DNA from: Photorhabdus thracensis
Lineage (GTDB): Bacteria; Pseudomonadota; Gammaproteobacteria; Enterobacterales; Enterobacteriaceae
NCBI RefSeq assembly: GCF_001010285.1
Contig: NZ_CP011104.1
Coordinates: forward strand, 4,898,001 to 4,962,000
Reading direction: 5' to 3'
Length of the DNA stretch: 64,000 nucleotides
Shown here: positions 26,433-59,292 of the stretch, piece by piece
How the letters are laid out: each line of letters begins with the position of its first letter
How positions within the stretch are numbered: the first letter of the stretch is position 1
The notes under the pieces: model-generated
Databases searched by the model: none
Told to the model about the DNA's origin: nothing
The model's input: only the letters and a program-made list of their open reading frames with translations
Translations under genes and position numbers: made by a program

Positions 26433-26450
26433 ATTATTTTATTGATATGA

Positions 26451-31533: not shown

Positions 31534-31590
31534 TGAGAAAATGAAGAATCACTTTCTCTCTTCAGTGGTAGTGTCTACCCCGCAGTAAAG

Positions 31591-31635: not shown

Positions 31636-31677
31636 CCCCTGATAAATCCCGCTGAAAAAATAATTATAAGTTTCCGG

Positions 31678-32055: not shown

Positions 32056-32258
32056 TATGAGGATGACTCCTCGCGGCGGCGGGGAATCATCTGCATTTCA
32101 GGCGATGTACCTCCGAGCGAAGCGAGCCGCTTTGCCGCCTGCACCTGAACAAACGTTTTTACCGCTTCCCGGAAAATATCAGCTTTGTCCATGCTAGGAT
32201 CGGCCATTTCCAGCGCTTGTGCATACAGCACATCATCAATCGTGACAGTAGTTCGCAT
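32055..32258 (-). CDS. vapB: VapB-type antitoxin
   Basis: 67 residues: [20 protein letters not shown] is a ribbon-helix-helix-like DNA-binding start, and the C-terminal tail ([20 protein letters not shown]) would wrap the toxin. A GAGGT ribosome site lies just before the ATG and directly abuts the large palindrome at 32271-32314, the likely autoregulatory operator. Confidence 0.9.
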
Positions 32259-32270
32259 TTGATTACCTCA

Positions 32271-32314
32271 TTGATTCAAATATTGATGCAATATTGCATC
32301 AATATCTGAATCAA
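32271..32314. promoter_or_regulatory. 44-bp palindromic operator of vapBC
   Basis: A two-fold symmetric sequence centred at 32292/32293. The inner 26 bp (32280-32305, arms ATATTGATGCAAT) is a perfect palindrome, and the outer 8-mers TTGATTCA / TGAATCAA add a second symmetric pair, with one mismatched pair between them. It begins 13 bases upstream of the vapB ATG, where binding would block transcription. Confidence 0.82.
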
Positions 32315-32319
32315 TGCAA

Positions 32320-33069
32320 GAGCATAAATCATTGGGGCAATTGCGTTAACCTGTCACCATTTAGTGTCTGGAAAATCACCCCAGAAGAAAACTGCTGGCC
32401 CAATTATCCTCGCAAGGGATGCAGGCTAATCAACAAATTACCTTCTTATCAGATGGCGCTGATAATCTCAGGGATCTGCAATTTAATTTGTACCCTGAAT
32501 CCCAGTATGTGCTCGACTGGTTTCATATCACAATGCGCCTGACAGTCTTAAAACAATATGCCAAAGGGGTATCAAAAGACGCCCCTGAACTCGGAGCAGA
32601 ATTATCAGACGTTTTAACCAGCACAAAATGGTCTATCTGGCATGGGAATGTCGATAAGGCATTAGAATATTTGGATCATTGTGCCTTGATATGTGATGAC
32701 GATACATTGCATTATGAAAACCATAAATCGCTGTTAAAACATATCGATGAAATGTATACCTATATTGAAAATAACCGCATGATGATCCCGAATTATGGTG
32801 AAATGTACCGATATGGCGAACCGATTTCTTCATCATTTGTTGAATCGACGATCAATGAAGTCATCGCTAAACGGATGGTGAAAAAGCAGAAAATGCAATG
32901 GAGTCAACAAGGAGCGCATTACTTACTTCAGACACGCACAGCGGTACTTAATGATGATTTGAAAACCCAATTTGAGCATTGGTATCCGGGCATAAAATTA
33001 GGTGACGAAACGGAGCATTATTGGACAGAAACGGTTGCTGCATAAATGCCCCAAGGTTTTTTATGCTCT
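32320..33069 (+). mobile_element. ISKra4-like element remnant
   Basis: Both ends carry related inverted sequence: GAGCATAAATCATTGGGGCA at 32320-32339 and, on the minus strand from about 33068, GAGCATAAA with TTGGGGCA. Only the C-terminal part of the transposase remains, so most of the 5' portion has been deleted while both termini persist. Confidence 0.65.
32365..33045 (+). pseudogene. ISKra4-family transposase, C-terminal part
   Basis: The open frame carries NQQITFLSDGADNLRDLQFN, LDWFHITMRLTVLKQYAKGV, PISSSFVESTINEVIAKRMV and a KKQKMQWSQQGAHYLLQTRT C-terminus, all typical of ISKra4 transposases (DDE type). About half of the usual length is missing at the N-terminus, and the first codons have no natural start. 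Confidence 0.78.
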
Positions 33070-34956: not shown

Positions 34957-34997
34957 GGGGGTTTGGGTGACCGGATAGGTCTACTCACCCAACCCCC
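34957..34997 (-). terminator. hairpin at the end of the orphan CDI gene
   Basis: GGGTGA/TCACCC extended by GGGGG/CCCCC with one bulged T gives a stem of about 13 pairs. It overlaps the stop codon of the 34985 gene. No long T-run follows, so its role as a terminator is likely but not proven. Confidence 0.55.
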
Positions 34998-35518
34998 CAT
35001 AAAGGATCTTTCCCTTGCAATTTAGCGCCTGCATACGCACCAGTAATACTCGCTATTTCTGTAAACCAAAACCCTTTGCCTTGCGTTAATGCCCCTGTTC
35101 CTGTGGCTATCAGTACATCAGTAATGTTCACAGGACCATTTGTCAGTTGATTACTGACATTAGCTGTTTCACTGATTACACCTCCAGCAAAAATACTGCC
35201 TACCGTTGCTCCCGATGGCAGCAACACCGGTGCCACCACTGTGGAAATCCCCGCGCCCCATGCTGTTATCAATCCTCTTACCGGATCTTGTCCTTCCGGG
35301 TGATCGCCTTTGGCATGCTTTGACAATGCCGCTGAAATCTCTTGAGAGGATTTACCTTCATTTGACATAGCGGTCGCCAAGCTGGATGCCGATCGACCGT
35401 AATCTGCCATTCCTTTTGGCAAACTAAGTGCATTATTGTCCGTAACAATGTAAAAACCCTTGTACAATAGCCAAGGTTGGTCCGGTCGTCGATCAGATAG
35501 TGGTATCTTAATTCTCAC
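34985..35518 (-). CDS. orphan CDI-type toxin segment (truncated)
   Basis: 177 residues. From residue 25 it reads VTDNNALSLPKGMADYGRSA and KHAKGDHPEGQDPVRGLITA with hydrophobic Gly-rich stretches, nearly the same as the 35741 protein, but it stops after GAKLQGKDPLWGVG, about 60 residues short of that paralogue. The first 24 residues are unrelated, so the homology starts exactly at a VENN-like junction. This is the pattern of an orphan CdiA C-terminal fragment displaced by recombination. It overlaps the immunity gene by 11 bp. Confidence 0.6.
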   Translation of the reverse strand: MRIKIPLSDRRPDQPWLLYKGFYIVTDNNALSLPKGMADYGRSASSLATAMSNEGKSSQEISAALSKHAKGDHPEGQDPVRGLITAWGAGISTVVAPVLLPSGATVGSIFAGGVISETANVSNQLTNGPVNITDVLIATGTGALTQGKGFWFTEIASITGAYAGAKLQGKDPLWGVG

Positions 35519-35744
35519 GATTTCCTTTCAAACGGGATAAGATCCAGATTCCCACTCCTAATGGTAATCCTATTGCTCCTCCTCTTCTTACTGAATCTAA
35601 AGTATTATTTGCCCATTCAAAATAAAAATGTCCATCTCTTAAGAAAAAAATAACAGCGACTCCAAGTCTAATAAAAAGCAAAGCAAATGTTATAAGGAAA
35701 AAAAATGAAATAGCTAGTTTTATCATAAGCCTAATATCTTTCAT
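35508..35744 (-). CDS. small membrane protein, probable CDI immunity protein
   Basis: 78 residues with two hydrophobic segments (LMIKLAISFFFLITFALLFI and GGAIGLPLGVGIWILSRLKG). It overlaps the upstream toxin-like gene by 4 bp. Immunity proteins against membrane-active CDI toxins are typically small inner-membrane proteins of this size encoded right after the toxin end. Position, coupling and size support that role; the sequence itself is not diagnostic. Confidence 0.55.
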   Translation of the reverse strand: MKDIRLMIKLAISFFFLITFALLFIRLGVAVIFFLRDGHFYFEWANNTLDSVRRGGAIGLPLGVGIWILSRLKGNREN

Positions 35745-36436
35745 TTTTTTCCTTCCCTTGTTTCCAATTGTTTCTGAACTTCCGAGCCGGCTATTTCCGA
35801 TGCTCCAGCTCCCAAAATAGCTCCTGTCAAATTAGATGTTTTATTCAATATTATTGGTTTCAGTTGATTTCCGGCAGTAATAATTTTACTTCCGGTCGAA
35901 CCAACTATATTACCAATAGCTGCCCCCGCCACTGGTGCAAGAGGGTTTTTATCCTGTAGTTTTGCCCCAACATAAGCACCTGTTATACTCGCCACTTCTG
36001 TAAACCAAAACCCTTTGCCTTGCGTTACCGCCCCCGTTCCCGTGGCTATCAGTGCATCAGTCATGTTCACAGAACCATTTGTAAGCTGATTACTAATGTT
36101 GGCTGTTCCACTGATTAGACCTCCAGCAAAAATACTGCCTACCGTTGCTCCCGATGGCAGCACCACCGGTGCCACTACTGTGGACATCCCCGCGCCCCAT
36201 GCTGTTATCAATCCTCTTACCGGATCTTGTCCTTCCGGGTGATCGCCTTTGGCATGTTTTGACAATGCCGCTGAAATCTCTAAAGGAGATTTACCTTCAT
36301 TTAACATCGCGGTAGCCAGACTGGATGCTAATCGACCGTAATCCGCCATGCCTTTGGGTAAGCTCAGTGCATTATTGTCAGTAACAACCCATTCCATTGC
36401 GAAGTGAGCCAGAGAACAGCGATTTTCCCTGTTCAT
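35741..36436 (-). CDS. orphan CdiA-type C-terminal toxin
   Basis: 231 residues; an internal ATG at 36397 (MEWVVTDNN) may be the true start. VTDNNALSLPKGMADYGR resembles the VENN junction that precedes the toxin end of CdiA and other two-partner-secretion hemagglutinins. The C-terminal 130 residues are Gly/Ala-rich and amphipathic (LAPVAGAAIGNIVGSTGSKI, NLTGAILGAGASEIAGSEVQ), as in membrane-inserting CDI toxins. The large N-terminal part of CdiA is absent, so it could act only after recombination into a full gene. Immediately followed by a membrane immunity candidate. Confidence 0.6.
   Translation of the reverse strand: MNRENRCSLAHFAMEWVVTDNNALSLPKGMADYGRLASSLATAMLNEGKSPLEISAALSKHAKGDHPEGQDPVRGLITAWGAGMSTVVAPVVLPSGATVGSIFAGGLISGTANISNQLTNGSVNMTDALIATGTGAVTQGKGFWFTEVASITGAYVGAKLQDKNPLAPVAGAAIGNIVGSTGSKIITAGNQLKPIILNKTSNLTGAILGAGASEIAGSEVQKQLETREGKK
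35967..36400 (-). repeat. about 430-bp direct repeat (second copy at 35010-35443)
   Basis: The DNA of the two CDI-type genes is almost the same from the VTDNNALSLPKG codons through the FWFTE-ASITGAY-GAKLQ codons. The copies are in direct orientation about 957 bp apart with the immunity gene between them. Recombination between them would delete or amplify the immunity gene. Confidence 0.75.
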
Positions 36437-36733
36437 TCAGTCAGTTACAACCCGTTTTTTCCGATGTGCGTTCACCGCCGAACCCAAAACCCCCTGACGC
36501 GCTTTTCGCCCCCGAAGGCCGGTTTTTCCCGCCGCGCTCTGGTCAGGGTAGCGCCTTTTTCGGCAACGGGCGAACGTCGCCCAACTGGCTTGGGCGGCGG
36601 GCGCCCGTTCTGCGGGCGCGGGCGGCATAGAGCCCGCAAGCGGCGCCCCTGCGACGCTCTGAGGCACGGGCGTTTCAGACCGGGCACGGCTTTGCATGAC
36701 CACGCGATTTTGTTCAGGGAAGCCCTCGGGGGG
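36437..36733. other. GC-rich non-coding segment, left part of the GC-rich block
   Basis: An abrupt change to high GC right after the CDI gene. Long frames exist on both strands, but they are Pro/Ala/Arg-rich chance frames of high-GC DNA and I do not call a gene. Composition matches the DNA at 38032-42893 and 44386-44697, so it is probably part of the same imported element, separated by the IS10-like insertion. The two flanks of that insertion are not continuous in coding sense, so a deletion has also occurred. Confidence 0.5.
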
Positions 36734-38031
36734 CTGAGGGATCCCCACAAATCGGTGCTAATAAACCAGCACCATATTTCGGTAGACTCTTGTTAAGTGG
36801 TTAAGAGCATCATTCAGTGATATTTGTTTTAAAATCAGTGGGGAGTGTCGTAAGACGTTCTCCGCTAACGTCAGATATGAGATGACCCGCCGTGATTTGA
36901 TACTGTTGGCCTGATATCTCAGATGTAATCCCTTATTCTCCACGTGATAACCAATCAGCCACAGGACGATTGTGCTCAGGGTTGCCAGTAAGCTCAGTAC
37001 CCGCATTCTACCCGCAGAGCGACTGTGGCTGGCACGAAGACCAAATCCGAAACGCTCACTTTTTTCATCGCGGAAGTTTTGCTCTATCTGCATGCGACGA
37101 CTGTATAACTTGATGATCTCCCGTGGCTTTAAATCATCTATACTACTGAAAATAAGCCAGGCTTCTTTTGCTGACTGCCGATACTCGTTGTCTGTTTTAG
37201 TATACATTGGCCTGCCTTTTGAACGTTTACTTTTCCGCCCTTTAGGTAATTTCTTGTATGTATAAAAATGACCATTAATACGGTTTTTCTTTTCTTTGAC
37301 CAGCGTTCCCGCCCCCATGTATTTCGGCGTTATTGTTCCGGGACAGTCAGAGATTTTCAGCCATATTTCAGGACTATCTGCTAGGTGAAATTGAACGTTA
37401 TTCCTGATCCGCCCAATAAAATCCCAGCCTAATGAGGTAATATGTCGAAACCATGGACTCTTAAATCCTGCGTCTGTGACGATGATGACTCTGGCATCGG
37501 AAGAGACGGCTTTAGCGAGGGAATCAAGAAACTGATTTTGTATTAAGGTGTTATTTTGTTTTTCCGAGGATACAACCCAACTCAATAACGGCATTGCCCG
37601 ACCGTCGCAAAGAAGGCTGGCACGAAGCACATGATACTCCTGCGATGGATAACCGCTCCAGTCCACAGCAATAACGCAAAGAGGCAACTGACGAGTTATC
37701 ATGGCAGTAATATTATTAAAAATCGCAGGAATATCGTTGTGAAGAGCGGTGTTTCCTAACAGGCGATCAACCCTTTTTATCTTGTTTTTGACCTGAGCCT
37801 GTCCGGGCAAAAAACGTCCAATACTGGTTAGCGTAAGAGAAGCGCCATTAATCAAAGCCATAGTGGCATCGATTAATGCATTCTGGCGATATTTATGAAA
37901 CGGTGCTAAGGCATCTTTGAAGAAGTTGTGACATACTTTACGTGCAGGCATAGCAGTGACCTTATTGACTTGGTGGAACAATCAGTAGATCACACAACGC
38001 TATGCTTGTCTATTTTCTGGGGATTCCTCAG
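36734..38031 (-). mobile_element. IS4-family element of the IS10 group
   Basis: Inverted ends CTGAGGGATCCCCA (36734-36747) and CTGAGGAATCCCCA (minus strand from 38031) are of the IS10 type and enclose one intact transposase gene. The element is about 1.3 kb. The 9-base flanks are not identical, so the insertion was followed by a rearrangement. Confidence 0.88.
36758..37981 (-). CDS. IS10-type transposase
   Basis: 407 residues (an internal ATG at 37951, MPARKVCHNFF, is an alternative start). It resembles the Tn10/IS10 transposase: SLTLTSIGRFLPGQAQVKNK, IKRVDRLLGNTALHNDIPAI, CVIAVDWSGYPSQEYHVLRA (first Asp), IIVTDAGFKSPWFRHITSLG (second Asp) and YSRRMQIEQNFRDEKSERFG (catalytic Glu, YREK-like). 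No frame damage is seen, so it may be active. Confidence 0.9.
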   Translation of the reverse strand: MFHQVNKVTAMPARKVCHNFFKDALAPFHKYRQNALIDATMALINGASLTLTSIGRFLPGQAQVKNKIKRVDRLLGNTALHNDIPAIFNNITAMITRQLPLCVIAVDWSGYPSQEYHVLRASLLCDGRAMPLLSWVVSSEKQNNTLIQNQFLDSLAKAVSSDARVIIVTDAGFKSPWFRHITSLGWDFIGRIRNNVQFHLADSPEIWLKISDCPGTITPKYMGAGTLVKEKKNRINGHFYTYKKLPKGRKSKRSKGRPMYTKTDNEYRQSAKEAWLIFSSIDDLKPREIIKLYSRRMQIEQNFRDEKSERFGFGLRASHSRSAGRMRVLSLLATLSTIVLWLIGYHVENKGLHLRYQANSIKSRRVISYLTLAENVLRHSPLILKQISLNDALNHLTRVYRNMVLVY

Positions 38032-40402
38032 CCCCGAAGCCCTGGCTTATCTGGAAAAACGCCGGCTCAACCACCCGGAATTAGTCGCCCAGTTTAAACT
38101 GGGCTTTGCCAACCGCACGTTAGCCTATCGCCTGCCCATCAAGGCGGTGCAGGCCGGCGCACAGATCCGCGCCCGTCTTCGGGCCGTGGGGCTGATGCGC
38201 GACAGCGGGCACGAGCACTTTACCGGTTCGCTGGTGATACCGGTTATCGACCCGAACGGCCAGATCCGCGAGATCTACGGGCGCAAAATCACCGACCGTT
38301 TACGTAAAGGAACGCCGCTGCATCTGTACCTTCCCGGCGCACATGGCGGGATATGGAATGAGCCGGCGCTGATCAGTTCAGGGACGGTCATCCTCTGTGA
38401 ATCCCTGATCGACGCCCTGTCGTTCTGGGTGGCCGGTCACCGCCATGTCACCGCCGCCTATGGGGTGAACGGCTTCACCGATGAGATGCGGCAGGCGTTT
38501 CGGCGGCATGGCGTTAAGCAGGTCTTGATCGCCTACGACAATGATCCGGCAGGCAATGAAGCGGCGGTAAAACTGGCCGCCGAACTCACCGCCGTCGGTA
38601 TCACCGTGTTCCGGGTGGTGTTCCCCGAGGGCATGGATGCCAACGGCTATCTGTGTCAGGTCGCTGAGCCGGAACGGGCCTTCGGGTTGTTGCTCGACAG
38701 TGCCGTGCCGATGCAGGAAGCGGCAGAGGTACAGGCCACCACTGCAACAGAGCGGGCCGCACTGGCTGAACATCAGCCGGTTCCGGTGCCGGAAACAGTC
38801 AGCACATTAGCCGCCGGTATAGCCGCGTTGCCGTCAATGCCGAATGTGGTCTGGGAAACCGGCGCTAACGGCGAGATATCCCTGACGCTGGGCACACAAC
38901 AGTGGGGTATCCGGGGCCTGTCACAGGTGAAAGCCGGGGCGGCGGTGATGAAAGTGAATGTTCAGGTCGTTGATACCGACAGCGGCGTGATGTTTGCCGA
39001 CAGCGTGGACATGATGAGCGCCCGCAGCCGGGGCGGGTATGCGCGGCTGGCCGCCACCGAACTCGGGCTGGCCGAAGGTGACCTGCGCCGGGCACTGGGG
39101 CAGGTGTTGCTGGTACTGGAACAGTGTCAACAGGCCGGCGTCAGTGAACAAACCGAACCCCCACCGGTTCCCGAACTGAGCGAGGACCAGCGGGCTGCGG
39201 CGCTGGCGCTGCTGCAAGACCCGAAACTGAGTGAACGCATCACCGCTGACTTAGCCGCCTGTGGCGTGGTGGGCGAATCCACTAACCTGCTGGCCGGTTA
39301 CTTAGCCGCCGTCAGTCGCAAGCTGGACCGTCCGCTGGCCGTGCTGATACAAAGCAGTTCGGCGGCAGGGAAAAGCAGCTTAATGGATGCGGTACTCAAT
39401 CTGATACCGGAAGAAGAACGGCTGCAATACAGCGCCATGACCGGCCAGAGTCTGTTCTATCTGGGGGAAACCAATCTCCAGCATAAAATCTTAGCCATTG
39501 CCGAAGAGGAAGGCGTCAGGCAGGCCGCCTATGCGCTCAAACTGTTGCAAAGCGACGGCGAACTGACCATTGCCAGCACCGGTAAAGATGACGCCAGCGG
39601 GAATCTGGTGACCAAACAGTACACGGTAAAAGGGCCGGTGATGCTGATGCTCACCACCACCGCGATAGATGTGGATGAAGAGCTGTTAAACCGCTGTCTG
39701 GTGCTGACGGTAAACGAATCGCGGGAGCAGACCGAAGCTATCCACGCCTTGCAGCGCCATAAACAAACGCTGGAAGGTCTACTGGCCGAGAATGAAAAGG
39801 CATATATCACCGAACTGCATCAAAACGCCCAGCGGCTGTTGCGCCCGCTGAATGTGGTTAACCCTTATGCCTCACAGTTAACGTTCATGAGCGATAAAAC
39901 CCGCACCCGACGCGACCACATGAAATATCTCACCCTGATACAAAGTATCGCCCTGCTGCATCAGCACCAGCGCGAGGTGAAGACAGCGGAACACCGGGGC
40001 AAACGGCTTGAATATATCGAAGTCACCAAAGAAGATATCCGCCTGGCGAACCGGCTGGCCCACGAGATATTAGGCCGCACGCTGGATGAGATGTCGCCCC
40101 AGACCCGAAAACTGTTACTGTTGATACAAGCGATGGTGAAAGAGACGGCGACAGCGCAGCAACGCCCGATGAACGCGGTCCGCTTTACCCGCCGGGATAT
40201 CCGCAGTTACACCCAATGGAGCGATAACCAGTTAAAAGTCCATTGTCAGCGACTGGCCGACATGGAATACCTGTTAGTCCACGGCGGCAGCCGGGGCCAT
40301 CTGTTGCAGTATGAACTGCTGTGGAACGGCGACAACGCAGAAGAAGCCCACCTGTGCGGCCTGATTGACCTGACAGCGCCGGAAAAACCGGTAAAACCCT
40401 GA
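37928..40402 (+). CDS. Toprim/P-loop replication protein, 5' end replaced by IS
   Basis: The frame gives 824 residues, but the first 35 come from the IS10-like end; native sequence starts at about 38033 (PEALAYLEKRRLNHPELVAQ). Residues about 100-270 form a primase-type Toprim region with LVIPVIDPNGQIREIYGRKI, VILCESLIDALSFWVAGH (Glu) and QVLIAYDNDPAGNEAAVKLA (DxD-like). Residues about 450-650 hold a P-loop ATPase (VLIQSSSAAGKSSLMDAVLN) with Walker B-like KILAIAEEEG and MLMLTTTAIDVDEELLNRCL. The end is helical/HTH-like. It is a primase-helicase kind of protein lacking its N-terminus (a CHC2 zinc finger would be expected). Phased repeats and a recombinase gene follow. Confidence 0.68.
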   Translation: MTYFTCRHSSDLIDLVEQSVDHTTLCLSIFWGFLSPEALAYLEKRRLNHPELVAQFKLGFANRTLAYRLPIKAVQAGAQIRARLRAVGLMRDSGHEHFTGSLVIPVIDPNGQIREIYGRKITDRLRKGTPLHLYLPGAHGGIWNEPALISSGTVILCESLIDALSFWVAGHRHVTAAYGVNGFTDEMRQAFRRHGVKQVLIAYDNDPAGNEAAVKLAAELTAVGITVFRVVFPEGMDANGYLCQVAEPERAFGLLLDSAVPMQEAAEVQATTATERAALAEHQPVPVPETVSTLAAGIAALPSMPNVVWETGANGEISLTLGTQQWGIRGLSQVKAGAAVMKVNVQVVDTDSGVMFADSVDMMSARSRGGYARLAATELGLAEGDLRRALGQVLLVLEQCQQAGVSEQTEPPPVPELSEDQRAAALALLQDPKLSERITADLAACGVVGESTNLLAGYLAAVSRKLDRPLAVLIQSSSAAGKSSLMDAVLNLIPEEERLQYSAMTGQSLFYLGETNLQHKILAIAEEEGVRQAAYALKLLQSDGELTIASTGKDDASGNLVTKQYTVKGPVMLMLTTTAIDVDEELLNRCLVLTVNESREQTEAIHALQRHKQTLEGLLAENEKAYITELHQNAQRLLRPLNVVNPYASQLTFMSDKTRTRRDHMKYLTLIQSIALLHQHQREVKTAEHRGKRLEYIEVTKEDIRLANRLAHEILGRTLDEMSPQTRKLLLLIQAMVKETATAQQRPMNAVRFTRRDIRSYTQWSDNQLKVHCQRLADMEYLLVHGGSRGHLLQYELLWNGDNAEEAHLCGLIDLTAPEKPVKP

Positions 40403-40414
40403 ATATGACTCACG

Positions 40415-40752
40415 CAAGTTGGACTGACTGAACCGCAAGTTGCCTTCAAGTTGGGATCAAGTTGGGCCCAAGTTGGAGGGCGGGAAACCGGCGTCAGACC
40501 GCAGCAATACTGGGAGGAACGGCTCGCAAGTTGGGGACGGTTGAAAAACACTGTTCCGGCAATAATAAGAAAAAGCCGTCGTATCGTACTGCCAGTACAT
40601 CATAGAACCCGAAAACCCGGAATACGACCGACGCAAGTTGGACTGACTGAACCGCAAGTTGCCCTCAAGTTGGGGTCAAGTTGGGCCCAAGTTGGAGGCC
40701 GGGAAATGGACGCCAGACCGCAGCAATACCGGGCTGAGCGGTCCGCAAGTTG
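40415..40752 (+). repeat. iteron-like array of twelve CAAGTTG repeats
   Basis: Copies of CAAGTTG(G/C) start at 40415, 40436, 40447, 40458, 40469 and 40527, and again at 40634, 40655, 40666, 40677, 40688 and 40745. Steps are 21, 11, 11, 11 and 58 bp in the first set and 21, 11, 11, 11 and 57 in the second; the sets are 219 bp apart. All repeats face the same way and the 11-bp spacing puts them on one face of the helix, as in iteron origins or other multi-protein binding sites. The region between the primase-like gene and the recombinase gene holds no gene. Confidence 0.85.
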
Positions 40753-40863
40753 GGGCAGACAGAAAAGGACTGTTCCGGCCACCTAAGAATCAAGCCATCG
40801 TACCGTCGTGATGTATCACACACCGATAACCATTAACCGCTGTTCCCTACAGGAAATCCCATC

Positions 40864-42279
40864 ATGTCATCACCCGTTAAACATCAATCCAACCCCCGCT
40901 CGCTGACCCTGCGCCAGCATCTGGACGCGTATCTGGATAACCTGCTGTTGCAGGGGGCGAGTCAAAAGAGCCAGTCCGCCCGTCATGAACGGCTGTCACC
41001 GTTCGTCAACTGGTGTGAGGAACAGGGCGTAATATCCGCCGCTCAGGTCACCGAACCGTTACTGGAAAACTGGCAGCAGTATCTGGCCCGGTACCGCAAG
41101 GCCAACGGCCAGCTTTATACGCAGGACAGTCAGCGCCGACGCCTGCGGTCCTTACGCCTGTGGTTCGACTGGTTGCAGCAACAGCACGCTATCCCAACCA
41201 GCCCGGCAACAACCCTCGCCTCGCCAGACAGAAAAAAACGCCCCTCTGTCATGGAGACCCACGGTCAACCCGACGCCATCCCGGCCCGCTTCGCCACCTT
41301 ACGCCAGCATCTGGCGGCCTGGCTGGAAGCCGTGCAGGGACAGGGCTTAAGCGAACGGACCCAAGAGTCCTATGAAGAACGGCTGTTGCCGTTCGTCAAC
41401 TGGTGCGAAGCGCGTGGGGTGATGACCGCACCGCAGGTCAGCCTGCCGTTGCTGGAAAGTTACCAGCGCTGGCTGAGAAGCCACCGTAAAGCGGACGGCC
41501 AGCCCTACACGCCGGGCAGTCAGCGGGACCGCCTGAGTGTCTTACGTCAGTGGTTCCGCTGGCTGTTGCAACGTCACCATATCCTGTATAACCCGGTGGA
41601 CAGTCTGGTGTTGCCGAAGGAAGAAAAACGGCTGCCGGCACAGGTAATGAATGAAGAGGAAACCCACACGGTCTTAGCCGCAACGGATATCAACACCCCA
41701 ACCGGGCTGAGAAATCGCGCTATCCTTGAAGTACTGTGGAGTACCGGTATCCGGCGGATGGAAGTAGCCAGCCTGCTGTTAAGCGAGGTGGACTTCGGGC
41801 GCGGGGTGGTGCTGGTCAGACAGGGTAAAGGCCGTAAAGATAGGGTGGTGCCCATCGGCGAACAGGCGCTGCACTGGTTAAGCCGCTGGCTCAGCGTCCG
41901 GCCCGAGTTAACGCGGCGGGGTGACAGTGGACACCTGTTTATCACCAGGAAAGGCCGGGGACTGGCAAAGGGCACGTTAACCTGGATAGCCGCCGACAGC
42001 ATCCGTAAACAGGCGCAACTGACTAAACCGGGGGCCTGTCATCTGTTCCGCCACTCAATGGCAACCCAGATGCTGGAGAACGGCGCGGACACCCGGCACA
42101 TCCAGGCGATACTGGGGCATGAGAAACTGGAGACGACGCAAATCTATACGCGGGTGGCCATCGGTCACTTAAAGCAAGTGCATGAGCAGACCCACCCGGC
42201 AGAACGGCAGTCAAAGCAGGCCACGCCAGACGACAAGCAGGCGGAGAGTGACAAGCCGGACAGCCCGAAGCCGGTCTGA
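40864..42279 (+). CDS. tyrosine recombinase with duplicated core-binding domain
   Basis: 471 residues, against about 300 for XerC/D-type enzymes. Residues about 14-125 and 146-262 are two similar SAM-like core-binding domains: TLRQHLDAYLDNLLLQGASQ ... LSPFVNWCEEQGV, and TLRQHLAAWLEAVQGQGLSE ... LLPFVNWCEARGV. The catalytic domain has all expected residues: STGIRRMEVASLLLSEV (Arg), RQGKGRKDRVVPI (Lys), CHLFRHSMATQMLENGA (HxxR), ILGHEKLETTQIYTRV (His and Tyr). It probably moves or resolves the GC-rich element and may act on the inverted dif-like sites 190 bp downstream. GC-rich, unlike the host genes. Confidence 0.85.
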   Translation: MSSPVKHQSNPRSLTLRQHLDAYLDNLLLQGASQKSQSARHERLSPFVNWCEEQGVISAAQVTEPLLENWQQYLARYRKANGQLYTQDSQRRRLRSLRLWFDWLQQQHAIPTSPATTLASPDRKKRPSVMETHGQPDAIPARFATLRQHLAAWLEAVQGQGLSERTQESYEERLLPFVNWCEARGVMTAPQVSLPLLESYQRWLRSHRKADGQPYTPGSQRDRLSVLRQWFRWLLQRHHILYNPVDSLVLPKEEKRLPAQVMNEEETHTVLAATDINTPTGLRNRAILEVLWSTGIRRMEVASLLLSEVDFGRGVVLVRQGKGRKDRVVPIGEQALHWLSRWLSVRPELTRRGDSGHLFITRKGRGLAKGTLTWIAADSIRKQAQLTKPGACHLFRHSMATQMLENGADTRHIQAILGHEKLETTQIYTRVAIGHLKQVHEQTHPAERQSKQATPDDKQAESDKPDSPKPV

Positions 42280-42893
42280 ACGTGCTGTGTTGCCGGACAA
42301 TCTTAATGTTAGCCGGTTCCCTGTGAGCGCGTGGGGTGCAGTGAAAGGCAGACTGCGCGCGTCCCTGCGCACAGACTGCCTCCCTACCTACGGCGTGCCC
42401 GGCGGTAAATGACGTCCGCCCGGCGCTAAACTCCGGCGTTCGCGGTGACAATCGTTGCCGGTCAGCCGCCATTCAACATAATGTGGCATTAAGCGAAATG
42501 GGCCTACACGGCCCACAACGCTTAACGGCACATTATGTCGGCACCGCCCACCCATGGGCGCTGCGCGGTTACCTTGGCCCCGGTGCGCGGCTGGCCGCCG
42601 GGTTGAGCTTCTCAGCCCCAGAGGCGCACCGGGCTGCGCCCGCTGCTGTCAGCCGCGGTGCCCAAACCCGCCGCCGCAGTCGCCGCCGTCCGTGGCGGCT
42701 CCGGGGCGAAAATCCGCCTTAAACCGTTGTCGGTCAGTCCGTCAAGGTCAACCGCCCTGAAGGCAGGCCAGCAAGCTGGCGCAATTTATGGCCCCCGCCC
42801 AACCCTGCTGCACTGGCTGCGTCCGGCTCGCAGTCGCAGGCTCCTCGCTCGTTCCCGTACTCGCCATCTCCGCCCCGTCCGCCCCCGCGAGCG
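42280..42893. other. GC-rich non-coding DNA downstream of the recombinase
   Basis: About 610 bases of high-GC DNA without a convincing gene; the visible frames are compositional. It contains the inverted dif-like pair at 42471-42542. It is cut at 42893 by the IS50-like element and continues at 44386. Confidence 0.55.
42471..42542. promoter_or_regulatory. inverted pair of dif-like recombination sites
   Basis: Plus-strand ATTCAACATAA-TGTGGCA-TTAAGCGAAAT and, facing it on the minus strand, GCCGACATAA-TGTGCCG-TTAAGCGTTG. Each has two 10-11-bp half-sites around a 7-bp centre, and the left half-site differs from the XerD half of dif (ATTTAACATAA) at one base. Because the two sites face each other, the whole also forms a hairpin with GGGCC/GGCCC next to the loop (42500-42514). 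Confidence 0.6.
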
Positions 42894-44385
42894 CTGTCTC
42901 TTGATCAGATCTCCAAATCAACTGATTTAGCCAGCAAATAGCCGTCTATCAGGGTTTGCAGCCGAAACCAACCTTCCCAAAGTCGTTCCCATCCGACTCG
43001 ACCCGTGCGTTTGGAATCGTACCAGCCGGCCAGTTTTCCCAGATTGATGAAGGCCCAATGCAAGCTCGGGGCTTTTTTCGGCACACGGCATTTTTCTTGT
43101 TTTGACCACAGTAATTTCCACGCCAGGGGGCTTAATACTGTCTCACAGCTCTCTTTCTCTGCTTCTTCTTTGTTCAGACCCTTAAAACGCAGCTGGTGTA
43201 TCCGTACCGCAATAAAGGCCAGCAGCACTATCATCCGCTCCAGATTATCTTTGCTTTGCATACGCAGCGCTTCTACCTGCGTGCCGCCCGTTTTCCACGC
43301 TTTGTGAAATTCTTCTATCAGCCAGCGGCGCTCGTAATAACTGAATATTTTATGGGCGTCTTCCTGACTGTTGACGGGTTCGGAGGTCAGAAGATGCCAG
43401 CAAAGCCCATCCTCCGGACCTTTTTCGTAGCAACCGACATAAAATATCCGCACCGCTTCACCGCTTTTTCCTTCGGGGATTTTCAACGTCACTTCGGCAT
43501 AACGGATATCACAATGCGCGACACGCGCCTGACGCCCGCCTTTCTGTCTGATCTGAACTAATCGTTCTCCAGCACTCTGTAACTGGCTGATAAAGTCATA
43601 AAGTTTATCCTGACTTTCCTCAATACGCCGGTTTTGCATCGAACGGATGACGAAACGGTGTTTTTGGCTCGTTTTATAACGCAGATATTCAATGATATCG
43701 GCTTCACGGTCACAGACAGAAATCACGTTGGCCATCTGCTCCCCTAACCGGCTGTCGACGGCTTGTGAGGCCCGTTCCCACTTATAACTCTCTTTCCCTT
43801 CATAAGGGCGTGTGTCGCGTTGTCGGCTTTTGCCATAATCACTGACATCTCGACACCAGCGCTGTTGCTCTATCAACCCCACGACCTGTTGTTCTTCAGG
43901 CGCAAATAACAACACCGAGTGTACCTGCATGCCCCGGGATTTTTCCGTCGAGGTGGTATAGCCGAGTTCATCGGCGACCGACGCGTGGGAAAATGACAGG
44001 GTTGTCGTGTCTTCCAGCGCTAACAGGCAACGATAACGTTGAGCGTGAGCGACGGTGGCGGTAAATCCGGCTTCGGCGATGGCCTGAGGCGCAATGGCGG
44101 AATTTCGGGTCAGTCGGTAGGCCGCTTCAACATCGGCAGGAGAGTCAAGAGATTGCACGAGCGATTGTCCTATATGGTTAGCCAACGAACAGGCCACTTT
44201 CACCAGGCGGTTGGTACGGCGTTTATCACCTAATTCCGCATGTTGAAACGTGTCATTTGCCCATTGTTCAGCGCAGGTTGAAAACATAAAGATTACCTCA
44301 AGTCGTGTTTGTTATTGAGATCAATCTATGAGGAAAAAGTTCAATAACGAGGGGGCAGGTTAAAATATTTGTGTAGGAAAGACAG
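42894..44385 (-). mobile_element. IS50-like element (IS4 family, Tn5 relative)
   Basis: The left end CTGTCTCTTGATCAGATCT (42894-42912) equals the inside end of IS50 base for base. The right end, CTGTCTTTCCTACACAAAT on the minus strand from 44385, matches 14 of 19 bases of the IS50 outside end. The 8-mer CGCGAGCG occurs on both sides (42886-42893 and 44386-44393) as a target duplication. Length about 1.49 kb. Confidence 0.9.
42905..44287 (-). CDS. IS50/Tn5-type transposase
   Basis: 460 residues (Tn5 476). AEQWANDTFQHAELGDKRRT, LALEDTTTLSFSHASVADEL (first Asp), VISVCDREADIIEYLRYKTS (second Asp) and YYERRWLIEEFHKAWKTGGT (YREK box with catalytic Glu) are all intact. The stop codon lies inside the inside end, as in IS50. 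An internal start that would make the Tn5-style inhibitor protein cannot be fixed. It looks functional. Confidence 0.93.
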   Translation of the reverse strand: MFSTCAEQWANDTFQHAELGDKRRTNRLVKVACSLANHIGQSLVQSLDSPADVEAAYRLTRNSAIAPQAIAEAGFTATVAHAQRYRCLLALEDTTTLSFSHASVADELGYTTSTEKSRGMQVHSVLLFAPEEQQVVGLIEQQRWCRDVSDYGKSRQRDTRPYEGKESYKWERASQAVDSRLGEQMANVISVCDREADIIEYLRYKTSQKHRFVIRSMQNRRIEESQDKLYDFISQLQSAGERLVQIRQKGGRQARVAHCDIRYAEVTLKIPEGKSGEAVRIFYVGCYEKGPEDGLCWHLLTSEPVNSQEDAHKIFSYYERRWLIEEFHKAWKTGGTQVEALRMQSKDNLERMIVLLAFIAVRIHQLRFKGLNKEEAEKESCETVLSPLAWKLLWSKQEKCRVPKKAPSLHWAFINLGKLAGWYDSKRTGRVGWERLWEGWFRLQTLIDGYLLAKSVDLEI

Positions 44386-44697
44386 CGCGAGCGGGGGCTC
44401 CCCGCTGAAAAGCTTCACCTGCGGGCTTCGCCAGCCCGCACCCGGCCAACCCGCGTCAGCGGCGCAGACAAGCTGCACCGCCGCCACGGGTTCCCAATAA
44501 AACCCGGTTCCGGCAGGCAAAGCGGGGCGAAACCCGGCGCTGACGTCGGGGAAAAAATGCGCTAACATCGGGAAAGTGCCCGTCGGGGCCAGTTGGCATG
44601 TTCTTTAACAGGGTGGGAAAAAGCGGCGGAGAAAAAGGCTGCTAAATCAGGGGGAAAGGTCCGCTAAACTGTATGATGGCGTCGGGATAGTCCCTAA
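44386..44697. other. GC-rich non-coding segment, right part of the GC-rich block
   Basis: A continuation of the GC-rich DNA after the IS50-like insertion, down to the junction with the intron fragment at 44698. No gene recognised; the frame on the minus strand at 44341-44568 is compositional and crosses the IS end. The right boundary of the imported element may lie in or next to this segment. Confidence 0.5.
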
Positions 44698-44907
44698 GAC
44701 CACCATCTGCGCGATGCGAACCGCTGGCGGCATATAACTGCCCGAGGCCATTCTGTTCCAGAGTTTGTACAAGTTCCCCGCGAGGTTCTTCTCAAATTCC
44801 TCAATCGATTGACCATCGATTCCAGCGCTGCCTTTGTTGGCTTTTACCTTCTTGTACGCTCTCCAGACAGCCTGTCTGGATAACGCAAACGGTTTGGACT
44901 GGCTCAC
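44698..44907 (-). pseudogene. group II intron reverse transcriptase, N-terminal fragment
   Basis: The first 70 residues (MSQSKPFALSRQAVWRAYKK, GSAGIDGQSIEEFEKNLAGN, SYMPPAVRIAQMVV) are identical to the complete protein at 57678-58874. The polymerase active site is missing. Confidence 0.88.
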
Positions 44908-45325
44908 AGGTTCCTCCCACTTGTGCAGTTGACCCGTAATACAACCCCAACGACTGGCCCCCTTCGCTCCACGTCCATTACAGACGCTTCATCACTACTA
45001 CGGAGCCATCTGCCCCTGTGACCCGCATCGGTACTCAGGCGCTTGCCGGTTTTCTGCTTGACGCCGCTCCCTTCACATCGGGACGACAGGTTCCCACGTT
45101 CCATGCCAGAGCCTGTGTTGTGCTCATGCTGTCTATATGCCGGATGCCGCCCAGCCAGTAACCAGATAACCGCTGGACTTATCACACGCCGCTTAGAAAG
45201 CGCGTTTTTGACATCATCTTGTTCCTTTCGACACTGCATCTACAGTTCACTCTCGTTCATCTTCACAACACATACATGGCGCATCTGACTGCGCCTTTTC
45301 CCTGACGCTCACCACCACCGCTCTT
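44698..45325 (-). mobile_element. group II intron, 5' fragment
   Basis: These 628 bases match 58665-59292 base for base wherever I compared them. They contain the 5' RNA domains and the first 70 codons of the intron protein, then stop abruptly at IAQMVV, where unrelated GC-rich DNA begins. The 3' part, with the catalytic RNA core, is missing, so the copy is dead. Confidence 0.9.
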
Positions 45326-45602
45326 AACGGCAGCAGCTCAGGGTAGTTTGAAGGCTGCGTCTGGACACCGCCTCCGAGGGGCCGACCCTCATCTCTCGCA
45401 CAGCATTGCACCCTTTATTTGCCACAGGGTGCATTCGTGGCACACCTACGCCGGAATCCCAGAAAATTCTGTCACTCTGATTTTACCCTCCAGACCAGTG
45501 AAGTTATCATCACCATTCTTTTCAGAAGATCACTGAGTTGTCCGACAAACGAATGTTTTCCGACAACCTGCGCCAATGTTGTCATGTACAACTGTTTGCT
45601 CC
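45326..45602. other. intergenic region before the toxin-antitoxin pair
   Basis: About 280 bases without a supported gene between the intron fragment and the operator of the 45653 antitoxin. Its origin is not recognised. Confidence 0.45.
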
Positions 45603-45622: not shown

Positions 45623-45652
45623 GTGGGAATGTGTAATTTTGGAGATTATCCC

Positions 45653-45904
45653 ATGAGTCGCCTAACCATCGACATAACAGACCAGCAGCACCAAAGCCTG
45701 AAAGCGCTGGCTGCCTTGCAGGGCAAGACCATCAAGCAATATGCGCTGGAAAGGCTGTTTCCCGGCGATGTTGATGCCAATCAGGCATGGAAGGAGCTGA
45801 AAACCCTGCTCGGTACCCGCATCCACGAGGGACTTGCTGGCAATGTGTCTACCAAGAGCATCAGCGAAATTCTCGATGAAGAACTGACCGAGGGCCGGGC
45901 TTGA
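45653..45904 (+). CDS. ParD/RelB-like antitoxin
   Basis: 83 residues from the ATG at 45653, with GGAG 8 bases upstream; a GTG at 45623 is less likely because it abuts the operator. SRLTIDITDQQHQSLKALAA and QGKTIKQYALERLF is a ribbon-helix-helix DNA-binding region, and the C-terminal half would bind the toxin. It partners with the next gene, which starts inside its stop codon. Confidence 0.85.
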   Translation: MSRLTIDITDQQHQSLKALAALQGKTIKQYALERLFPGDVDANQAWKELKTLLGTRIHEGLAGNVSTKSISEILDEELTEGRA

Positions 45905-46212
45905 CTGGCTACGTTCTCACTGCGGCGGCAGAATCCGACCTGCGCGGCATCATCCGCTACACCCGCAAGCAATGGGGCGATGCTCAGGTGCGCCGCTACA
46001 TTGCTATGTTGGAACAAGGTATCGCCAGCCTCGCCGATGGCCGGGGTGTGTTCAAAGACATGAGTGCGCTTTTTCCGGGTCTACGGATGAGGCGGTACGA
46101 ACATCATTACGTCTTCTGTCTACCGCGTGAGGGAGCGCCTGCTCTGATAGTGGCTATTTTCCATGAACGCATGGACCTGATGACACGACTGGCTGACCGG
46201 CTCAAAGAGTGA
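45901..46212 (+). CDS. ParE/RelE-like toxin
   Basis: 103 residues from a TTG start that overlaps the antitoxin stop (TTGA). The antitoxin frame leads straight into it and no ATG lies near, so translation depends on the upstream gene, which keeps toxin below antitoxin. YVLTAAAESDLRGIIRYTRK, QWGDAQVRRYIAMLEQGIAS and YEHHYVFCLPREGAPALIVA fit the ParE fold. ParE toxins act on gyrase; whether this one does is unknown. Confidence 0.85.
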   Translation: MTGYVLTAAAESDLRGIIRYTRKQWGDAQVRRYIAMLEQGIASLADGRGVFKDMSALFPGLRMRRYEHHYVFCLPREGAPALIVAIFHERMDLMTRLADRLKE

Positions 46213-57614: not shown

Positions 57615-59292
57615 ATCGGGTCGCGCAAGGGAACTTCCCCCCTGCGCTCCCACGGAACCGGACGTGACAGTCTCCCGTCATCCGGCTCTTGTCGTTGACC
57701 GTTCGCGCCGCGTACAAATTTCCCAGTGTGCAAACAGACCGGGTTTAACGCTCCGTATCCTGCCTAACCATTCATACGCCTGAGCCAGACTACCGTGTAC
57801 CCGCTTATATTTGCGGGTAACCCATTTAGCAAGGTGCAGATCTACATGACTGGCTATACAGTCCATTGCTGACCGATAAAAGTGCCCATAGTACTTAACC
57901 CAGCCTCGTAACATGGGATTGAGCCATCGTGCCATTACTTCCAGCGACAACGGGGTTTTGTGACTTAAATCCCAGCCCCGTACTGTCTGCCGGATTGCCT
58001 TCGCAGCTCTGGCACTCATTGCTGGCAGGAAATTCACCGATAACTCTCCTTCTTTCGAGACCGACTTTCTTGGCCTGAACGTGTAGCCCAGAAAGTCAAA
58101 GCGCGTCTCTGCGTAATTCCCCCGTCTATCGGCATCCTTGCAATAAACTACCCGGGTCTTCTGAGGATGCAACTCCAGTCCACATTGCGCAAACCGCTGG
58201 CCTAGTTCACTTATTAGTGCTTCGGTCTGCAACTGACTTTGACAGTGGCATACCACATCATCCACGTATCTTTCGAAGGGGACGCTGGGAAACTGACGTT
58301 GCATCCACATGTCAAAGACATAGTGCAGGAACAAATTCGAGATCAGGGGGGAAATCACACCGCCCTGCGACGTTCCACCCTCCCTTGACTGCATTGTTCC
58401 ATCCGGCATGTACACCGACGCGGTTAGCCATCGCTCAATGTAGAGCAACACCCCTCTGCAATCCGTATGCCTGCGCACCGCTCTCATCAGGAGTTCATGA
58501 TCGATGTTATCGAAGAACCCCTTGATGTCCACGTCCAGCAACCAGTCAGTGCGCCAGCATCGTTGCCGGGCTACTCTCAGGGCATCGTGCGCAGATTTGT
58601 GCGGGCGGTCGCCATAGGAGTCAACGTGGAATTGTGGCTCCAGAATCGGCTCCAGCATGTCTTTGACCACCATCTGCGCGATGCGAACCGCTGGCGGCAT
58701 ATAACTGCCCGAGGCCATTCTGTTCCAGAGTTTGTACAAGTTCCCCGCGAGGTTCTTCTCAAATTCCTCAATCGATTGACCATCGATTCCAGCGCTGCCT
58801 TTGTTGGCTTTTACCTTCTTGTACGCTCTCCAGACAGCCTGTCTGGATAACGCAAACGGTTTGGACTGGCTCACAGGTTCCTCCCACTTGTGCAGTTGAC
58901 CCGTAATACAACCCCAACGACTGGCCCCCTTCGCTCCACGTCCATTACAGACGCTTCATCACTACTACGGAGCCATCTGCCCCTGTGACCCGCATCGGTA
59001 CTCAGGCGCTTGCCGGTTTTCTGCTTGACGCCGCTCCCTTCACATCGGGACGACAGGTTCCCACGTTCCATGCCAGAGCCTGTGTTGTGCTCATGCTGTC
59101 TATATGCCGGATGCCGCCCAGCCAGTAACCAGATAACCGCTGGACTTATCACACGCCGCTTAGAAAGCGCGTTTTTGACATCATCTTGTTCCTTTCGACA
59201 CTGCATCTACAGTTCACTCTCGTTCATCTTCACAACACATACATGGCGCATCTGACTGCGCCTTTTCCCTGACGCTCACCACCACCGCTCTT
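57615..59292 (-). mobile_element. group II intron, complete
   Basis: On the minus strand it runs from about 59279 (GTGAGCG; the 13 bases before it, AAGAGCGGTGGTG, are shared by both copies and may be exon or intron) to ...CGACCCGAT at 57615. Domain V is clear at 57655-57688 (GAGCCGGATGACGGG ... GTCCGGTTC), followed by a domain VI-like stem. It carries a reverse transcriptase. The first 628 bp recur at 44698-45325. Confidence 0.88.
57678..58874 (-). CDS. group II intron reverse transcriptase/maturase
   Basis: 398 residues. RT blocks: KANKGSAGIDGQSIEEFEKN, LLDVDIKGFFDNIDHELLM, EGGTSQGGVISPLISNLFLH and the active site RYVDDVVCHCQS. The maturase region is LPAMSARAAKAIRQTVRGWD, RWLNPMLRGWVKYYGHFYRS. 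There is no endonuclease domain at the C-terminus. The stop codon lies inside domain V, so coding and catalytic RNA overlap by about 11 bases. Probably functional. Confidence 0.93.
   Translation of the reverse strand: MSQSKPFALSRQAVWRAYKKVKANKGSAGIDGQSIEEFEKNLAGNLYKLWNRMASGSYMPPAVRIAQMVVKDMLEPILEPQFHVDSYGDRPHKSAHDALRVARQRCWRTDWLLDVDIKGFFDNIDHELLMRAVRRHTDCRGVLLYIERWLTASVYMPDGTMQSREGGTSQGGVISPLISNLFLHYVFDMWMQRQFPSVPFERYVDDVVCHCQSQLQTEALISELGQRFAQCGLELHPQKTRVVYCKDADRRGNYAETRFDFLGYTFRPRKSVSKEGELSVNFLPAMSARAAKAIRQTVRGWDLSHKTPLSLEVMARWLNPMLRGWVKYYGHFYRSAMDCIASHVDLHLAKWVTRKYKRVHGSLAQAYEWLGRIRSVKPGLFAHWEICTRRERSTTRAG

What the first reader, a model, noticed from the sequence alone, without database searches (positions are those of the whole stretch)
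36437..44697. Remains of an integrative, possibly replicating element: Toprim/ATPase gene, phased iterons, unusual recombinase, dif-like sites
Seen: one GC-rich block with a primase-like Toprim plus P-loop protein, a repeat array with helical phasing directly after it, a tyrosine recombinase, and inverted recombination-like sites, interrupted by IS10- and IS50-like insertions. Known: iteron-type origins combine a replication protein with phased direct repeats, and integrases usually lie next to their attachment sites. Inference: the block is a damaged mobile element that can replicate and integrate, of a type I do not recognise.
Basis: partly seen in the sequence, partly recalled or inferred. 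Interest (0 to 1): 0.8.

Follow-up and report, generated by a model that had tools for sequence, protein, structure and literature searches.

The report
Mobile plasmids that swap toxin tips
The window holds the wreck of a small plasmid-like mobile element whose relatives insert at the boundary between the fixed body and the replaceable tip of bacterial weapon genes and bring a new toxin tip with its antidote, which could explain how bacteria change their weapons.

Summary
The window copy is a broken member of a multi-copy family: the host genome has 14 long primase copies, each beside a recombinase. A full unit (about 7.4 kb) carries an Rhs toxin tip and immunity gene, SymE-like and XRE genes, a DnaG-type primase fused to an MCM-like ATPase, phased iterons, a XerC/D-like recombinase and a dif-like site. 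Its left end is the DPxGL codons that separate Rhs core from tip; its right end abuts the DPxGL of the displaced tip. A sister branch uses the VENN-type boundary of CdiA. In other genera DPxGL lies at 25 of 27 readable left and 22 of 27 right ends. Empty sites exist in E. coli rhs, an IS, a phage terminase and an intron RT gene; the last three share only GAT or GACC with the element. Two circular plasmid records are built of such units. Best reading: integrative plasmids that replace toxin tips by site-specific recombination. The window copy sits in an intron RT gene, has lost its left part, and is fused to a relic of a CdiA-type element. Activity is inferred.

The parts
35741..36385 (-). orphan CdiA C-terminal tip fragment beginning at a VENN-type motif (VTDNNALS)
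   Evidence: named from the motif and by likeness to the 3.0-Mb CdiA-like locus; no Pfam hit
36386..36733 (-). relic of the right end of a second, CdiA-type element
   Evidence: 36372-36736 is 87% identical to the right end of the CdiA-inserted copies at 3.0 Mb; junction read
36734..38031 (-). IS10-like insertion sequence (transposase 36758-37981) joining the two relics; no matching target duplication seen at its flanks
   Evidence: NCBIfam IS4_2 E 1.4e-104; terminal repeats; flanks read by eye
38032..40402 (+). primase-helicase gene without its N-terminal zinc-finger part (about 135 of 925 residues of the full-length relative)
40415..40752 (+). 12 iterons CAAGTTG with helical phasing, probable origin region
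40864..42279 (+). XerC/D-like tyrosine recombinase, open frame, residues R297/R298 K322 H393 R396 H419 Y428 present (catalytic roles assigned from recalled knowledge of the family)
42471..42499 (-). dif-like site (11 + 7 + 11 bp), similar position after the recombinase in many relatives
42894..44385 (-). IS50-like insertion in the non-coding 3' region, 8-bp target duplication 42886-42893 / 44386-44393
44386..44697 (+). right end of the Rhs-type element; its last 25 bases recur in 11 places of the host genome (this one included, one with 3 mismatches)
44698..44701 (+). GACC shared by element end and target
44698..45350 (-). group II intron reverse transcriptase gene fragment: the target into which this copy was inserted
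   Evidence: NCBIfam TIGR04416 E 1e-15
58661..59292 (-). second copy of the same intron RT gene, uninterrupted at the site (GACC at 58665-58668): empty-site reference

Best explanation
This is a broken copy of an integrative plasmid family that replaces the toxin tips of polymorphic weapon genes. Proposed cycle. (1) The unit leaves the chromosome as a circle in which its right end meets the start of its own tip gene (attP). (2) The circle is maintained by a DnaG-type primase fused to an MCM-like ATPase acting at phased iterons; multimers may be resolved at the dif-like site. (3) The XerC/D-like recombinase joins attP to GA(CC)-type sites, above all the DPxGL codons at the end of the Rhs core. 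(4) The incoming tip then continues the core frame, its immunity gene follows, and the old tip with its immunity gene is pushed downstream behind the element as an orphan. Repeats of the event stack units into arrays. A sister branch does this at the VENN-type boundary of CdiA. Shown by sequence: unit structure, ends, empty and filled sites, in-frame junctions, arrays, circular records, conserved catalytic residues, iteron/primase co-variation. Inferred: that this recombinase makes the joints, that the primase protein starts replication at the iterons, the role of the dif-like site, silence of the orphans, and any movement today.
For: 14 of 14 long primase copies of the host genome pair with the recombinase. 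A 7377-bp unit is 100% identical at 784 kb and 2.70 Mb with different flanks and starts at the DPxGL codon. Empty sites: six uninterrupted copies of the IS end read CAG-GATAAG where the 784-kb copy reads CAG-GATCC...CTAA-GATAAG; two flanks map side by side (300/301) in an intact phage terminase gene, sharing GACC; the intron RT gene has an uninterrupted copy in the same window. E. coli Ec-U9-1 versus KW21 at one rhs locus: 7,789 extra bp in KW21 between two GACCC sites; similarity resumes exactly at GACCC on the right and on the left runs 74 bp past it, as the two tips start alike; the Ec-U9-1 tip and its immunity gene are the orphan behind the element in KW21. DPxGL-type codons at 25 of 27 left and 22 of 27 right ends; opposite-strand control 2 of 27 each. 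CdiA-type junctions. S. flexneri 8,758-bp circle: started at its junction, its last base maps to the last base before GACCC in E. coli SCU-113; Lonsdalea 11,289-bp circle of two units. Iterons follow primase type: A type in 32 of 38 A-primase loci, B type in 20 of 23 B-primase loci. Catalytic residues invariant in 44 aligned recombinases.
Against: No experiment. Free circles look rare: in E. coli 0 of 199 places lie on plasmids. A circular record can be a mis-assembled tandem array. Of 26 plasmid records with a match 15 were listed and 5 inspected; 3 of these 5 carry the element inside a plasmid of 170-475 kb. The Shigella circle also holds an IS and a 159-codon piece of Rhs core. The stretch shared with off-target sites is only 3-4 bp, short for a tyrosine recombinase. 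In 3 of 11 right ends of the host genome the target is not an Rhs gene. Two further right ends lie inside the Rhs core, about 140 codons before DPxGL, so a second site or a hybrid is needed. KW21 differs from Ec-U9-1 by more than one unit, so it is not a single-step insertion, and the core gene is annotated as frameshifted in KW21 and with an internal stop in SCU-113. The terminase case needs a later exchange between two copies or an assembly error. In one search the motif was missed at 5 of 27 right and 2 of 27 left ends. 3 of 38 A-primase loci carry B-type iterons, and 3 more have fewer than three A-type ones. The MCM-like part of the model is weak in places (residues 600-682).
Confidence: 0.82

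Rival explanations
1. Tips are exchanged by ordinary homologous recombination and tandem duplication in rhs/cdi arrays; the primase and recombinase genes are passengers of an element that once inserted there.
For: Models of this type are offered in PMC3150448 (passages read). Tandem copies are long and nearly identical, and right ends of two kinds occur with identical recombinases.
Against: Insertions into an IS, a phage terminase and an intron RT gene share only GAT or GACC with the element and stop at the same bases as at rhs. The unit in the IS carries its tip and immunity gene along.
Confidence: 0.1
2. An integron-like cassette system: the recombinase acts on a folded single strand and the units are gene cassettes, some without the backbone.
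For: XerC/D-like recombinase, very short shared stretch, stacked units, and two short units with tip + immunity gene + tail only (host genome 478551-477711; KW21 16331-17178). IntI4 is among the structure-database sequence hits.
Against: Of eight right-end strands folded (window and three relatives), seven have z between -1.5 and 0.05 and one -2.1. The recombinase travels inside the full unit with a replication gene, and no fixed platform was seen. A folded site elsewhere is not excluded.
Confidence: 0.06
3. An element that uses the host XerC/XerD at its dif-like site, the recombinase and the Rhs ends having other roles.
For: Dif-like score >=15 of 22 in 28 of 39 sequences versus 19 of 312 shuffles.
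Against: None of the junctions read lies at a dif-like site; it sits inside the unit, and Rhs-type ends are at GA-start sites. Copies at chromosomal dif were not searched for.
Confidence: 0.04
4. A phage satellite or prophage remnant.
For: Some copies abut phage terminase genes.
Against: No match to the primase in 50,697 phage records at E 1e-30; the terminase gene is a target and that holds the IS, so they are not parts of the unit.
Confidence: 0.02

Closest known systems
Orphan cdiA-CT/cdiI and rhs-CT modules ('silent cassettes') in CDI and Rhs loci (PMC3150448, passages read)
   Same: Same boundaries (VENN, PxxxxDPxGL), same stacking of displaced tips with immunity genes.
   Different: The passages propose recombination, partly after tandem duplication, and call the mechanisms of exchange unknown; 'recombinase' and 'integrase' do not occur in its text.
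Polymorphic toxin tip replacement by standalone cassettes (PMC3482391, passages read)
   Same: A tip and its immunity gene replace the old tip in one event; XerC/D genes are noted near polyimmunity loci.
   Different: No mobile unit, ends, circle or target sequence in the passages read; 'primase', 'Toprim' and 'integrase' do not occur in the first 300,000 characters, which is what is held.
rAID systems of Bacteroidales (PMC12247911, a preprint, passages read)
   Same: A tyrosine recombinase next to arrays of interbacterial immunity genes.
   Different: As described in the passages, orphan immunity genes only; no toxin tips and no integration into the toxin gene.
Integrative plasmids and SCCmec-type islands (recalled; MCM-like helicases of mobile elements in PMC5862659, passages read)
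   Same: Site-specific integration in a gene end, own replication proteins, MCM-like ATPase.
   Different: Here the gene end that is brought in changes the product; the primase is DnaG-type and not archaeo-eukaryotic; the target is a weapon gene.
NCBIfam NF002331 (PRK01287) 'site-specific tyrosine recombinase XerC' subfamily
   Same: The window recombinase scores 619.9 bits against a cut-off of 371.
   Different: The family name suggests housekeeping XerC; here the protein sits in a mobile unit.

Membership tests
Integrative plasmid | site-specific integration by an own tyrosine recombinase | tested here: inconclusive
   Catalytic residues invariant in 44 sequences, exact ends and empty sites; activity not tested.
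Integrative plasmid | autonomous circular form with own replication gene and origin | tested here: inconclusive
   Two circular records made of units with no other replication gene annotated; iterons conserved and co-varying with primase type; replication not tested and mis-assembly possible.
Integron cassette | attC-type folded recombination site | tested here: inconclusive
   Right ends fold about as well as shuffles in 7 of 8 strands; other parts of the unit were not folded.
Integron cassette | integrase at a fixed platform, cassettes without their own integrase | tested here: not met
   Recombinase lies inside each full unit; two short units without it exist.
IMEX / dif-exploiting element | integration at chromosomal dif through host XerCD | tested here: not met
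   None of the junctions read lies at a dif-like site; chromosomal dif sites were not searched.
Integrative conjugative element | relaxase and conjugation genes | tested here: not met
   None among the ORFs of the 7.4-kb unit as read by eye; both small circles typed non-mobilizable.
Polymorphic toxin orphan module | tip plus immunity gene starting at DPxGL or VENN | tested here: met
   toxin domains Tox-ART-HYD1, WHH with Colicin-DNase, Tox-HNH-EHHH, Tox-GHH in 4 of 9 tips scanned.
XerC/D-type tyrosine recombinase | R-K-H-x-x-R-H-Y set and XerC/D-like sequence | tested here: met
   (XerD 1a0p E 1.5e-66).
DnaG primase | CHC2 zinc finger and Toprim acidic residues | tested here: met
   C40 H43 C61 C64, E259 D305 D307 invariant in 53 aligned sequences, 2au3 E 5.8e-40; the window copy lacks the zinc finger.
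MCM helicase | MCM-type AAA+ fold | tested here: inconclusive

The most novel reading that the evidence does not exclude
A dedicated weapon-retooling system of Proteobacteria, with relatives on Leptospira plasmids: replicating circles that use the toxin genes' own core/tip boundary as attachment site, deliver a new in-frame toxin tip with its antidote, archive the old one downstream, and move short backbone-less tip cassettes in trans, as integrons do for resistance genes.
Probability: 0.5. Interest if true: 0.95.

Novelty: new variant of a known kind. Interest (0 to 1): 0.87.

Why it matters
Rhs and CdiA weapons are known for swapping their toxin tips at sharp boundaries, and the 2011 paper on the orphan modules says of the exchanges it saw that the mechanisms are unknown (PMC3150448, passage). 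This family offers a concrete, testable agent: a recombinase, its site, a circle and a replication module. It would explain why immunity genes come along, why displaced tips pile up in arrays, and why several assemblies break exactly at the boundary. The primase/MCM-like fusion with matching iterons may be a new replicon type for small plasmids.

Tried and rejected
Reading the 36.4-44.7 kb block as one element: rejected, because 36372-36736 matches only the CdiA-type copies at 3.0 Mb among the host stretches compared, and lies on the other strand.

Dif-like inverted repeats as the ends: rejected, because they lie inside the unit.

An attC-like fold of the right end: both strands folded for the window and three relatives, no clear support.

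Phage origin: no primase match in the phage collection.

Short contigs as circles: of 40 whole short contigs only L027 (38 bp) and L039 (12 bp) have matching ends, and tandem arrays explain this equally.

A VENN-type motif in other C-type or distant loci: the pattern found it with an open frame in L073 only; L085 and L118 gave none, one L127 hit has no supporting context, and L117 uses another boundary.

Papers: ten searches. Listings were seen, and passages of PMC3482391, PMC3150448, PMC12247911 and PMC5862659; no paper was read whole. None of the listed titles or abstract starts describes such an element. The library holds only open-licence papers, so absence there is weak evidence.

Rows left out of counts: 45 of 72 loci at each end were not counted, for lack of flank or because the gene end was missing or unknown; gene limits were typed in. 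The misses are L026, L032, L040, L060, L066 (right) and L079, L080 (left); L026, L040, L060 and L066 have a DPxGL motif further downstream. One search counts 63 of 72 loci (38 A, 23 B, 2 C), those with both genes on one strand close together. Of 54 intact primase frames one, L076, was left out of alignment A1. Alignment A2 holds 42 of the 59 recombinase frames, the longer ones chosen by hand, plus the window and one C-type copy. One search used 39 sequences with enough length; some of its 28 high scorers (L059, L083, L089) lie elsewhere or have another spacing and may be chance. Primase types A/B/C are best-hit labels, not a tree. Searches are samples with strict E-values (1e-150, 1e-100). The SymE-like name of the host-genome ORF is recalled; its E. 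coli, Shigella and Lonsdalea counterparts are so annotated. That the host is a Photorhabdus is inferred from the closest hits.
Full report
WHAT IS IN THE WINDOW. The Toprim/P-loop ORF, the repeat array, the recombinase, the two IS elements and a dif-like site are all there. The Toprim protein matches relatives from residue 35; a full-length relative in the same genome has 925 residues and starts with a CHC2-like zinc finger. The window copy therefore lacks about 135 residues, replaced by an IS10-like element (36734-38031) whose flanks show no matching target duplication by eye, as expected for a rearrangement. An IS50-like element (42894-44385, 8-bp target duplication) sits in the non-coding 3' part.

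A MULTI-COPY FAMILY. The host genome (one contig, 5,147,098 bp) has 21 matches to the primase: 14 long ones and 7 short ones to residues 1-44, the part that seems to come from the IS end. Of 22 recombinase matches, 14 lie next to the 14 long primase matches, one each. Copies fall into three types: A (9 copies, recombinase 471 aa, like the window), B (3, 351 aa) and C (2, 376 aa). Several lie in tandem, primase to primase 7.0-7.9 kb apart, including clusters A, A, B and A, B, B in ascending coordinates.

THE ENDS. A 7377-bp stretch is 100% identical between the copies at 784 kb and 2.70 Mb, whose flanks differ. Its left end begins with the codons D-P of DPIGLAGG, the known boundary between the constant Rhs core and its variable toxin tip (motif PxxxxDPxGL: PMC3150448, passages). 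Its right end is ...GGGATAGTCCCTAA. Of 11 places in the host genome with this right end (10 exact, one with 3 mismatches; reversed-pattern control 0), 8 are followed by the DPxGL codons of an orphan tip, one by an IS, one by a phage terminase gene and one, the window copy, by a group II intron RT gene. Two more copies have a different right end inside the Rhs core, about 140 codons upstream of DPxGL. The unit thus carries a tip and immunity gene at its left end, in frame with the core in front of it (open cores of 1286, 1286 and 1313 codons in L011, L016 and L015), and leaves the previous tip as an orphan behind it.

EMPTY SITES. (i) Six uninterrupted copies of the IS end hit by the 784-kb unit read GAGCCCACCCTCAG-GA-TAAGTACGG; the filled one keeps both sides and shares only GAT with the ends of the unit. 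(ii) The left flank of the 489-kb array and the right flank of the 2.70-Mb copy are two halves of one phage terminase gene: in a translated comparison they map to positions 301 onward and up to 300 of an intact Providencia phage gene, with GACC shared. That they now lie 2.2 Mb apart implies a later exchange between copies or an assembly error. (iii) The RT gene cut by the window copy has an uninterrupted copy in the same window: GTCTTT-GACC-ACCATCTG. (iv) E. coli: at the rhs locus between ansP and pptA, strain Ec-U9-1 has core + tip X + immunity gene WP_023155668.1; strain KW21 has core (annotated frameshifted) + another tip with Imm8, a second tip, SymE, HTH, primase and xerC, and then tip X with WP_023155668.1 as an orphan. 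On the right the two genomes align again exactly from GACCC; on the left the alignment runs 74 bp past the GACCC at the end of the core, because the tips start alike; 7,789 bp lie between the two GACCC sites of KW21. This is more than one unit, so at least two events. A34 is a second strain in which likeness to tip X begins at GACCC with Rhs core in front, there split in several frames. SCU-113 has one unit more than KW21.

OTHER GENERA. A scan of genome contigs (one genome for each of 84,980 species) with the window protein gave 93 confirmed stretches, of which the best 80 were kept as 72 loci: Photorhabdus, Xenorhabdus, Pectobacterium, Brenneria, Dickeya, Serratia, Citrobacter, Samsonia, Edaphovirga, Methylibium, Massilia and MAGs. 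Where enough flank exists, DPx[GN][LIFVM] occurs on the coding strand 1.0-2.6 kb before the primase in 25 of 27 loci and 0.4-1.3 kb after the recombinase in 22 of 27, against 2 of 27 on the opposite strand in each case. Some use the second DPxGL of the Rhs tail, 22 residues on (L044, L047, L050 and the 1.29-Mb copy). In a sample of the host's order 12 of 394 genomes (E 1e-150), and of the phylum 7 of 398 (E 1e-100), have the primase or a large part of it, own genome included. In E. coli 55 of 5,426 genomes hold a close relative (megablast), 199 places, all chromosomal.

CDIA BRANCH. The C-type copies at 3.0 Mb form an exact tandem repeat of period 7,350 bp (7,152 bp compared) inside a CdiA-like gene. 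The left junction is AGKNA-IENNYLS, a VENN-type boundary, and the right end ...GGAATGCGTTGTT is followed by ATTGAGAATAAC again, then in the last copy by another tip start (ATTGAAAATAACTCAATG). The window's left relic is such a right end, followed by an orphan tip VTDNNALS. One MAG locus (L073) has an AVNNYL variant upstream; L085 gave none with that pattern. On a Pseudomonas aeruginosa plasmid the unit lies in a two-partner-secretion haemagglutinin gene with a second, partly fetched unit behind it, at a different boundary.

CIRCLES. Of 26 plasmid records with a match 15 were listed; two of these are under 12 kb and built of units. The Shigella flexneri SWHIN_104 record (8,758 bp) has HTH, SymE, an immunity-like hypothetical gene, ISEc1, xerC and an unannotated primase across the record start; it also holds a 159-codon piece of Rhs core. 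Started at its end/tip junction it matches E. coli SCU-113: bases 1-4532 at 24137-28668 (98.8%) and bases 4523-8758 at 19890-24136 (99.0%) or 28737-32966 (92.6%), where 24136 and 32966 are the last bases before GACCC of the chromosomal array. It is thus what excision between two such sites would give. The Lonsdalea populi record (11,289 bp) is two units of 3,825 and 7,464 bp with two end/tip junctions preceded by 10 and 7 in-frame codons, so no core there. Both could also arise by collapse of tandem arrays in assembly.

CARGO. Two units whose backbones are 93.5% identical (1.29 Mb and 784 kb) do not align in their first 0.85-0.88 kb, the tip and immunity gene. Of 9 tips scanned, 4 have a Pfam toxin domain: Tox-ART-HYD1, WHH with Colicin-DNase, Tox-HNH-EHHH and Tox-GHH. 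Two short units have only tip, immunity gene and a tail like the right end, by pattern with 3 mismatches in the host genome (478551-477711) and by eye in KW21 (16331-17178); they are candidates for cassettes moved in trans.

HOW IT LIKELY WORKS. The recombinase is XerC/D-like with an invariant catalytic set. By eye, the right end resembles the Rhs core in front of DPxGL (GTCGG or CAG in register), so circle and target may look alike to the enzyme, which would explain the preference for rhs and the rarer use of other GA(CC) sites. These steps are inference. Two things fit less well: the very short shared stretch, and the second insertion point inside the core.

NOVELTY. Tip swapping and orphan modules are known. 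A self-replicating element with its own recombinase that uses the boundary as its attachment site was not found in ten full-text searches of the open library (listed under Tried and rejected). As a kind it is nearest to integrative plasmids, hence 'new variant of a known kind'.

Noticed in passing
window 45623-46212: ParD/ParE toxin-antitoxin pair just beyond the intron fragment. RelE/ParE-type pairs sit next to xerC in related units on Salmonella, Lonsdalea and Pseudomonas plasmids, but here the pair lies outside the element.
   Followed up: partly
window 34985-35518 and 35741-36385: Two similar CdiA-like tip fragments with VTDNNALS in a row, on the minus strand: a small orphan array.
   Followed up: partly
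host genome 494 kb and 2.70 Mb (L009, L016): Halves of one phage terminase gene lie at two distant element copies: element-mediated rearrangement or assembly error.
   Followed up: partly
host genome 2259889 and 2319603 (L012, L015): Two units end inside the Rhs core, about 140 codons before DPxGL, with a different right end; contigs L027 and L031 start or end at a similar core sequence.
   Followed up: partly
L119 16331-17178; L009 (host genome 477711-478551): Backbone-less units of about 0.85 kb: tip, immunity gene, short tail.
   Followed up: partly
L118 and other Leptospira plasmid records: Primase relatives at 39-41% identity in the listed records; in L118 beside a tyrosine recombinase and behind a very large peptidase M23 gene. 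Target boundary not determined.
   Followed up: no
NCBIfam NF002331 / PRK01287: The window recombinase scores well above this family's cut-off under the name XerC, and E. coli, Shigella and Lonsdalea relatives are annotated xerC: the label hides a mobile-element enzyme. Other members were not checked.
   Followed up: no
L010 (host genome 780.2-790.7 kb): The IS that received the 784-kb unit itself interrupts a second phage terminase gene: nested insertions.
   Followed up: partly
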